Source: Polychytrium aggregatum (lineage: Eukaryota; Chytridiomycota; Chytridiomycetes; Polychytriales). From it: a stretch of 64,000 nucleotides of DNA. Position 1 is the stretch's first letter, and each line of letters starts with the position of its first letter. Below, piece after piece: positions 43,795 to 46,013 of the stretch. The notes beneath the pieces are model-generated. The model saw only the letters and a list, made by a program, of their open reading frames with translations. It was not told the origin of the DNA and did not search any database. A program made the position numbers and the translations under genes. Where the stretch lies: NCBI RefSeq assembly GCF_025602895.1, contig NW_026516231.1, forward strand, positions 434,001 to 498,000, read 5' to 3'.

Positions 43795-45079
43795 ATGGAA
43801 TACGACCACACAGACAGCGGATCAGGACGGAGTCCGTCTCTACCCAAACCGGAAGAGACACTGTCAACGGGCTCCGACGCTGCAAATCTGGGTGTGTTCG
43901 TCGCTGCTTTGACAGTGATCGTGCCCGGCCGTTCTCGTCTTGATCCTCTTGGACGAAACAGCTATCCCCTTGTCATCCGCAACCCGCCGTATATCCGCTT
44001 GATTGAGAACGACGAGCAGACGGCGATGGTCATAAGCAAGCGATCTCGCCCGAGTTGGACTCTGTCCCCGGAAGCATCGCGACTCGCTGCAAAGGTAAGA
44101 CTGGAAATCCTGACTCCTGAATCTGTTGCGTTGTCGCCATTTCTGTCGCCACAGACATCAATAGGGGCGATGTAGTAGTGGTTGTGTGCGAGCAACCCGT
44201 GCGAGCAATTCGTGCGGTCCCGAAACCTTTTGCCAATCGGTGAGAGTTTTTCCGGGGCACTCATCGCCCACAATCCCCTGGGAATCCGCCCATAAAACCT
44301 CGTCGGGCAGCGTGAACCTGCACAACCAGTGCCACAGGCTCGCTTGACATCAGCAACAGCCCCCAGGTCAAATGCATGTCGATCAAGCGCACTGGAAACA
44401 AATCCTGCATCTCGATGGGCATGATCCTGCAAGGCCCTTTGCGATAGAAATGGCGAGGCTGTACTCGTCCAACGCCCGCGAGTCGCTGGCATATATAGAG
44501 GAGTTGCTGTAAGTTGAAATTCTCCCCAGCGATGCAGATGTGCTGCGGTCGAGAGCTGCTGTTCCTGCGCTGCCGATGGTGTCGCCACATGAGCGAGAGT
44601 CGGCAACCGAGAGGGCCTGGATGCCCTGGATGACCTGGATGACTTGGATGACCCGGATGACTTGGATGGTGCGATGACGCGGCTTTCTCACCGTAATGCT
44701 CTGTCCGCGGCCGCACGGGGCGGGCAAACGGGCGGGCTCTGGTTGCTGTTGAACCAAAATAAGTACCAAGCAGGAGCCAGGATTCCTGATTCTCTTAAAG
44801 CGAGAGGCTTCCAAGCTCAAGGTTGCTGCCGCGACGCTTGGCTTCACCCGGATGAAGGGCCTCTGCTTCATTCTGGAGCAGTACAGCGATCTCAAGGATC
44901 CCGACAATACCTTTGTCGTGTCTATCGAGACCACCGAGGCCGTCCGGCGATCACGGCTCACGGTCTTGGAGGTAGTCTGCGAGTTTCGCCGGACACAGGA
45001 GTTTCTCCAAACTGCCCTTGCGATCGAGCTGGAGCCGTACGGGTCTCTGTCCGGACCCCTCGACTCGCGATCAGAATAA
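43795..45079 (+). CDS. HPt-domain phosphotransfer-like protein lacking the histidine
   Basis: Ypd1-like four-helix HPt fold. The firm part is two exons, 44372-44508 and 44764-45079 (453 bases, 150 residues). Helix A is VDQAHWKQILHLDG, then FAIEMARLYSSNARESLAYI with EELL. After an in-phase intron come EPGFLILLKREASKLKVAAA and TLGFTRMKGLCFILEQYSDL, and a last helix LEVVCEFRRTQEFLQTAL. The active site of HPt domains reads H-x-L-K-G-S/A-A; here it is SKLKVAAATLG, with Ser (TCC) at the phospho-histidine position and Val for the glycine. A phospho-relay role is therefore doubtful; a decoy or inhibitor like plant AHP6 is inference. A further exon, 43795-43891 (MEYDHTDSGSGRSPSLPK...), joins in frame at the acceptor 44365-44366 and is a plausible but unproven N-terminus. 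The acceptor before 44764 is AAG with a weak pyrimidine tract. Confidence 0.65.
44616..44669. repeat. 9-bp tandem repeat (CCTGGATGA), six copies
   Basis: Six imperfect CCTGGATGA/CTTGGATGA units inside the last intron of the HPt-like gene. On the plus strand they read Leu-Asp-Asp in frame, but they lie outside the exons I infer. Confidence 0.8.
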
Positions 45080-46013
45080 ATTCAATTGTCATATCTGCGC
45101 GATTCTCTCTGCTGCCTGCTCCGAGCAGCACACACTCGCCGCTACCACCGGCAACCTAATCCATTCTGGCGTGTGTGGATCCAGTTCAAAAGCAAAATCG
45201 GTCTCAAGGTCCAAGATGCTGTTGCAGCAAGTAGCTCTCAACAACAACCATTCAGGTTGATTGCCGAGATACAGTTCCACCAGCAAGCCACTCTCTCCCT
45301 GCACCCAGCTGCGTTCGTTCCGCCCATCTCTCCAAAGGCAGGCCGCATCAACAATTGCTCTGCTCGACCGCAAACGATGCCGGGTTGTGAAAGCAGCCAA
45401 AGCAGCGGGATATTTCAGCGACTCGCTGGTGAGGACAATGGATTGGAGAGCGCCACTGCAGACGCAATAGAAAAACACAGCAAATTGCCTGCCTCGGATC
45501 TTCTTTGGTTGCTCCCTTTGATTGGGGTCATCCTCCAGACCCCAGCTCACTGCTATTGCGTCGACTCTGTCCATCGCATCGACTCGGCTCGCCGTACCAG
45601 GCCAGCAGAACAGAGTGTCGGTCTGTCGATCCGTTTACTTGCCCTTCATGCTTGCACTGCTTGCAGGAATGCTGCTCGCAGCAACACCACTGCCGGGGCG
45701 ATGCGGCTGCACTCCGAGGTGCATCCGAGTATGCATCATGGTCTGTTGGATCACGATCCCACCACGAGCTGCGCCATATCGCCACGCTGGTTCCAGCCAG
45801 CAGATCGCCCTTCAGGCCAGGCCAGGCCACGTGATCCCATAATTTACCTTATATGGCTTGATTTGTTGGATCCGGAGCAATGACAAATCGCCTCGCCGCT
45901 GAGTATATGAGGCCAACCCAGCCGCTTCACACTCGCACCCCCGGGACCGCTCTCCTCGTCGCTGCCAATCCCATCCCCTCCCACCGATTCTCGAGGAGCC
46001 GCATCCAGCCAGC
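45080..46013. other. Upstream region of RNR1
   Basis: About 930 bases between co-oriented genes. TTATATGG at 45849-45856 (TATA-like) and a CT-rich leader after 45950 precede the RNR1 ATG. I searched for MluI cell-cycle boxes (ACGCGT) and found none. I see no gene. Confidence 0.45.

What the first reader, a model, noticed from the sequence alone, without database searches (positions are those of the whole stretch)
44372..45079. HPt-fold protein with serine in place of the phospho-accepting histidine
Seen: helices VDQAHWKQILHLDG / FAIEMARLYSSNARESLAYI / TLGFTRMKGLCFILEQ fit a Ypd1-type HPt domain, but the H-x-L-K-G core reads SKLKV. Known: HPt proteins relay phosphate through that histidine, and plant AHP6, which lacks it, inhibits the relay. 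Inference: this could be a fungal pseudo-HPt that binds histidine kinases or response regulators without passing phosphate on. As far as I know no such fungal pseudo-HPt is established.
Basis: partly seen in the sequence, partly recalled or inferred. Interest (0 to 1): 0.72.

Follow-up and report, generated by a model that had tools for sequence, protein, structure and literature searches.

The report
Fungal phosphate-relay protein missing its histidine
This gene encodes a relative of the fungal relay protein Ypd1 that has lost the histidine that carries phosphate, in a genome where searches found no histidine kinase and no normal Ypd1, so the fold seems to be kept for something other than passing phosphate.

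Summary
Exons 44372-44508 and 44764-45079 join into a 150-residue protein. It matches Pfam Hpt at E=4.5e-5 (24.1 bits, just under the 24.6 cut-off), and its best PDB matches are Chaetomium thermophilum HPt chains. Ser62 replaces the phospho-accepting His, Lys65 is kept, and Val66 replaces the H+4 Gly.

The same genome holds a paralogue (79 of 147 residues identical, same intron position and phase) in which the two sites read Leu and Thr. Silent sites are saturated, omega about 0.04: strong purifying selection. Two of the three assembled paralogue copies carry a nonsense codon.

The inhibitor idea is weakened: searches found no HisKA, no recognisable histidine-kinase ATPase, no Nik1-type kinase and no canonical Ypd1; the one receiver found sits on a Rim15-like kinase. 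These are capped six-frame searches, so absence is likely, not proven.

Best reading: Ypd1 descendants kept as phosphate-free binding proteins after the histidine-kinase layer was lost. Yeast Ypd1 G68V is under 3% phosphorylated yet still binds its receiver, about threefold more weakly (PMC6341664, passages). The partner is unknown; Rim15's receiver is the obvious candidate.

The parts
44372..44508 (+). Exon 1 of the pseudo-HPt gene (residues 1-45 and two bases of codon 46): first helix and most of the second
   Evidence: ATG is the first Met after an in-frame stop; donor CT|GTAAGT; aligned residue by residue with the paralogue's exon 1
44509..44763 (+). Intron, 255 bases, same position and phase as the paralogue's 78-base intron; holds a GGATGACCT-type repeat
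   Evidence: GTAAGT...AAATAAG; only acceptor of nine that keeps the frame
44764..45079 (+). Exon 2 with stop: HPt core helix, following helices and C-terminal helix
   Evidence: open frame to TAA; Pfam Hpt match 26-86 of the joined protein
44810..44812 (+). Ser62 codon TCC at the position of the phospho-accepting His
   Evidence: alignment with C. thermophilum HPt and S. cerevisiae Ypd1
44819..44821 (+). Lys65, H+3, conserved
44822..44824 (+). Val66 codon GTT at the position of the conserved H+4 Gly

Best explanation
The gene encodes a Ypd1-lineage HPt-fold protein that can no longer carry phosphate: the phospho-accepting His is Ser62 and the H+4 Gly is Val66 (shown by alignment). It is one of two diverged paralogues, both without the His and the Gly, that kept their sequence under strong purifying selection for much of their divergence (shown by omega about 0.04 on saturated silent sites). 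The genome appears to have lost the hybrid histidine kinases and canonical Ypd1 (searched, not proven). I infer that the fold survives as a phosphate-free binding module. The most likely single partner is the receiver domain of the Rim15-like kinase, the one receiver domain found, which could be held or shielded by the pseudo-HPt (inferred by analogy with Ypd1 G68V, which binds Sln1's receiver without being phosphorylated; not shown).
For: HPt homology. His to Ser and Gly to Val. Paralogue with Leu and Thr at the same sites and a shared intron. Selection: 87 of 284 first and second codon positions differ against 92 of 142 third positions (Fisher p about 3e-11); omega 0.038, 2 delta lnL 81 against omega 1 (t about 7.9, so the exact value is rough). 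No HisKA; all ten HATPase_c matches read: six carry dehydrogenase-kinase, Hsp90 or gyrase/topoisomerase domains in the same frame and none of the ten frames carries HisKA; a Nik1-type query that matches HisKA, HATPase_c and Response_reg strongly in Pfam rings only on the Rim15-like receiver at 35% identity over 60 residues; Response_reg finds that receiver only. No canonical Ypd1 by two Ypd1 queries, the Hpt profile, or either paralogue as query. G68V in yeast Ypd1: under 3% phosphorylation, Kd 2.9 against 0.94 micromolar (PMC6341664, passages).
Against: Two of three assembled copies of the paralogue have a nonsense codon at residue 49, so that gene at least may be decaying now. Pairwise omega averages over the whole divergence and does not show that selection acts today. 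No transcript, structure or binding data; the single-sequence fold of exon 2 failed (mean pLDDT 39). The Rim15-like receiver is split by an apparent intron, so other split receivers could have been missed. The Hpt profile and both Ypd1 queries also missed the window gene itself, which limits what their silence means. The Rim15 link has no direct evidence.
Confidence: 0.58

Rival explanations
1. Decaying relic: after the relay was lost, both Ypd1-like genes are drifting toward pseudogenes and have no present function.
For: His and Gly both lost; two of three paralogue copies carry a nonsense codon; score just under the Pfam cut-off.
Against: Open frame, intron and length conserved in two genes over saturated silent divergence; omega about 0.04; conservation continues through the C-terminal helices (31 of 51 residues).
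Confidence: 0.2
2. AHP6-like inhibitor: it competes with a canonical Ypd1 for histidine-kinase or regulator receivers and so damps an active phosphorelay.
For: His absent as in plant AHP6; bulky H+4 residue still allows receiver binding in yeast Ypd1 (PMC6341664); one phosphorylatable-looking receiver exists (one search's sibling locus L014).
Against: No kinase layer and no canonical Ypd1 found.
Confidence: 0.12
3. The fold has been re-used for a partner unrelated to two-component signalling.
For: Two losses in the active-site patch in both paralogues; no relay partners found apart from one receiver.
Against: No positive evidence; no extra domain in the protein.
Confidence: 0.2
4. Mis-splicing or sequence error: the real transcript restores a His.
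For: Weak acceptor context at 44764.
Against: Two-base change needed; only in-frame acceptor of nine; the paralogue has the same exon structure and no His either.
Confidence: 0.03

Closest known systems
Fungal Ypd1 (C. thermophilum HPt, PDB 8pbw; S. cerevisiae Ypd1, PDB 1qsp)
   Same: Collinear helices through the first four helices, conserved D15, F23, L64, K65, L71, G72, C80 in the four-sequence alignment; about the same total length.
   Different: His replaced by Ser and H+4 Gly by Val; two to three residues longer just before the core helix; no histidine-kinase partners found in the genome.
Plant AHP6 pseudo-HPt
   Same: HPt homologue without the phospho-accepting His (PMC4709007, passages).
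   Different: Plant protein acting beside canonical HPts; the fungal one also loses the H+4 Gly (AHP6's own H+4 residue was not checked here) and no active relay was found to inhibit.
Yeast Ypd1 G68V laboratory mutant
   Same: Same Gly to Val change at H+4; phosphorylation under 3%, receiver binding kept (PMC6341664, passages).
   Different: The mutant still has its His; the window protein has lost both.
Rim15 kinase receiver domains that cannot be phosphorylated (Ascomycota)
   Same: Another fungal two-component domain kept after loss of its phospho-site (PMC8510515, passages).
   Different: Receiver, not HPt; in this genome the Rim15-like receiver still looks phosphorylatable by eye.

Membership tests
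Hpt / Ypd1 (PF01627) | Sequence similarity to the HPt profile | tested here: inconclusive
   E=4.5e-5, 24.1 bits, curated cut-off 24.6; E=7.4e-4 to a solved fungal HPt; above 1000 of 1000 shuffles. Homology is clear, the formal cut-off narrowly missed.
Hpt / Ypd1 (PF01627) | Phospho-accepting histidine | tested here: not met
   Ser62, TCC; Leu in the paralogue
Hpt / Ypd1 (PF01627) | Small residue (Gly) at H+4 | tested here: not met
   Val66; Thr in the paralogue
Hpt / Ypd1 (PF01627) | Lys at H+3 | tested here: met
   Lys65 in both paralogues
Hpt / Ypd1 (PF01627) | Helical-bundle fold | tested here: inconclusive
   Only exon 2 alone could be folded; mean pLDDT 39
Hpt / Ypd1 (PF01627) | Relay between a hybrid kinase and a regulator | tested here: not met
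   No kinase found by HisKA, HATPase_c or a Nik1-type query; six-frame, capped searches
AHP6-type pseudo-HPt | HPt homologue lacking the His | tested here: met
AHP6-type pseudo-HPt | Inhibits an active phosphorelay | not testable with these tools
   Needs biochemistry; no relay was found in the genome
AHP6-type pseudo-HPt | Descent from the plant AHP lineage | tested here: not met
   Best solved-structure matches are fungal; no plant HPt listed up to E=10

The most novel reading that the evidence does not exclude
A fungus that has discarded its histidine kinases and its canonical Ypd1 keeps two phosphate-dead Ypd1-fold proteins as protein-only regulators of the one receiver domain left to it, on a Rim15-like kinase, so that a two-component pair works with no phosphate passed between its members.
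Probability: 0.22. Interest if true: 0.8.

Novelty: new variant of a known kind. Interest (0 to 1): 0.55.

Why it matters
Fungi are described as having only one type of HPt, Ypd1 (PMC8510515, passages), and HPt function is usually equated with carrying phosphate. A natural HPt-fold pair without the His, apparently in a genome without histidine kinases, would show that the fold has a use that does not need phosphotransfer, and would give a clean system in which to ask what happens to Ypd1 and to Rim15's receiver when the kinase layer is lost.

Tried and rejected
Reading that restores a His: rejected for two-exon models; micro-exon models not computed.

Antisense ORF (44383-45081, minus, 232 aa): no Pfam match at E up to 1; its tblastn match to the paralogue locus (34%, with stops) is far weaker than the sense match (77 against 135 bits). 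Rejected as the coding strand.

Weak extra hit at C90 (E=0.18): read in full and judged chance, since it lacks the HPt core.

Structure: single-sequence fold of exon 2 gave mean pLDDT 39; not used, no fold search made. Searches found the machine busy.

Skn7-type regulator: four HSF loci read over 6.5 kb each; no receiver in them by tblastn, best E 1.9.

Relatives in viral contigs: 61 pattern matches, none confirmed. No collection of other fungal genomes was available, so whether relatives share the Ser is untested.

Published result that cuts against the rarity of HPt without kinases: a survey reports HK and RR domains in 20 of 35 fungi but HPt in 32 (PMC4558063, passages), so apparent kinase absence beside an HPt can be a detection artefact or is less rare than it looks. 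A print search for a fungal pseudo-HPt (listings only, open-licence papers only) showed none.

Full report
What is there. The window holds a two-exon gene on the plus strand, 44372-44508 and 44764-45079, coding 150 residues. The window is part of a 551-kb contig of a 64.7-Mb, 418-contig genome. Its neighbours include ribosomal protein S23 and ribonucleotide reductase large subunit, and a Glyco_transf_15 mannosyltransferase, a family that I recall as fungal; together with the best HPt matches this fits a fungus.

Homology. With the corrected sequence Pfam reports Hpt alone (E=4.5e-5, 24.1 bits, cut-off 24.6). Of four PDB sequences listed up to E=10, three are C. thermophilum HPt entries (E 5.3e-4 to 8.5e-4) and the fourth, an aminotransferase, is at E=0.43. 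A two-sequence Ypd1 profile scores the protein at 16.9 bits and the best of 1000 shuffles at 8.5. In the alignment the His falls on Ser62, the H+3 Lys is kept as Lys65 and the H+4 Gly is Val66.

The paralogue. A tblastn-type search of the genome with the window protein gave eight matches: two are the gene's own exons and six are the two exons of a paralogue in three assembled copies (contigs C364, C135, C322). It shares 79 of 147 residues, the intron position and phase, and has Leu and Thr where the window gene has Ser and Val. The C364 copy is open; the other two, identical to each other over the coding part, have an AGA to TGA change that stops the frame. The copies sit in stretches that are 98.8 to 100% identical over kilobases, so they are recent duplicates or haplotype copies.

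Selection. Over 142 aligned codons, 46, 41 and 92 differences fall on first, second and third positions (Fisher p about 3e-11 for the first two against the third). A codon model gives omega 0.038 against 1 with 2 delta lnL 81; silent sites are saturated so the number is rough. Both lineages were therefore under protein-level constraint for most of their divergence. This does not date the loss of His: one ancestral loss followed by drift at that site, or two losses, fit equally.

The relay in this genome. Hpt profile: no match, but it did not ring on the window gene either. C. thermophilum HPt and S. cerevisiae Ypd1 as queries: nothing. The paralogue as query: nine matches, eight being the known genes and one at E=0.18 judged chance. 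HisKA: none. HATPase_c: ten matches; read in Pfam, four have dehydrogenase-kinase domains, one Hsp90, one gyrase B, and the remaining four have only ATPase domains, no HisKA (by eye one looks like a dehydrogenase kinase and three like MutL proteins). Response_reg: one match, at the end of a protein kinase which I call Rim15-like from its layout and recall. A Nik1-type core typed from recall, strong in Pfam for all three kinase domains, rings only on that receiver, where a hybrid kinase would be expected to ring far more strongly. Four HSF loci have no receiver within the 6.5 kb read. The searches are six-frame, exon by exon and capped at the first look, and the Rim15-like receiver itself is interrupted, so I read this as probable loss of histidine kinases, not proven. 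It should be weighed against the published survey that lists HPt in 32 of 35 fungi but HK and RR in 20 (PMC4558063, passages).

Mechanism. Shown: HPt homology, loss of His and of the H+4 Gly in two paralogues, past purifying selection. Inferred: the protein cannot carry phosphate; it still may bind a receiver. The second step leans on yeast Ypd1 G68V, under 3% phosphorylated while its Kd for Sln1's receiver changes from 0.94 to 2.9 micromolar (PMC6341664, passages). With no kinase layer found, an AHP6-like brake on a running relay is less likely than a phosphate-free binding role. The Rim15-like receiver is the natural candidate because it is the only receiver found; by eye it keeps the acidic pair, the phospho-acceptor Asp, the Thr and the Lys, as described for Rim15 outside Ascomycota (PMC8510515, passages). 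No result here ties the two proteins together.

Verdict. The inhibitor interpretation is only partly supported. The more interesting point is the apparent absence of everything the protein should relay between.

Noticed in passing
L012, L013 (contigs C135, C322), paralogue copies: Two of three assembled copies of the paralogue carry an AGA to TGA nonsense codon just after the intron; the C364 copy is open.
   Followed up: partly
L014 (contig C57:641000-648500): Rim15-like kinase with a C-terminal receiver that looks phosphorylatable by eye and is split by an apparent in-frame intron, in a genome where no histidine kinase was found.
   Followed up: partly
window 44618-44668: GATGACCTGGATGACTTGGATGA-type repeat inside the intron; a 51-base stretch at 86% identity lies on contig C146 (L010).
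   Followed up: no
window 44383-45081, minus strand: A 232-residue antisense frame stays open across both exons and the intron; no Pfam match.
   Followed up: yes
L033/L034 (C101, C376), L016/L017 (C410, C412): Near-identical contig pairs (99.6% over 6.5 kb for C101/C376), suggesting haplotype copies or recent duplications in the assembly; the window gene itself appears once.
   Followed up: no
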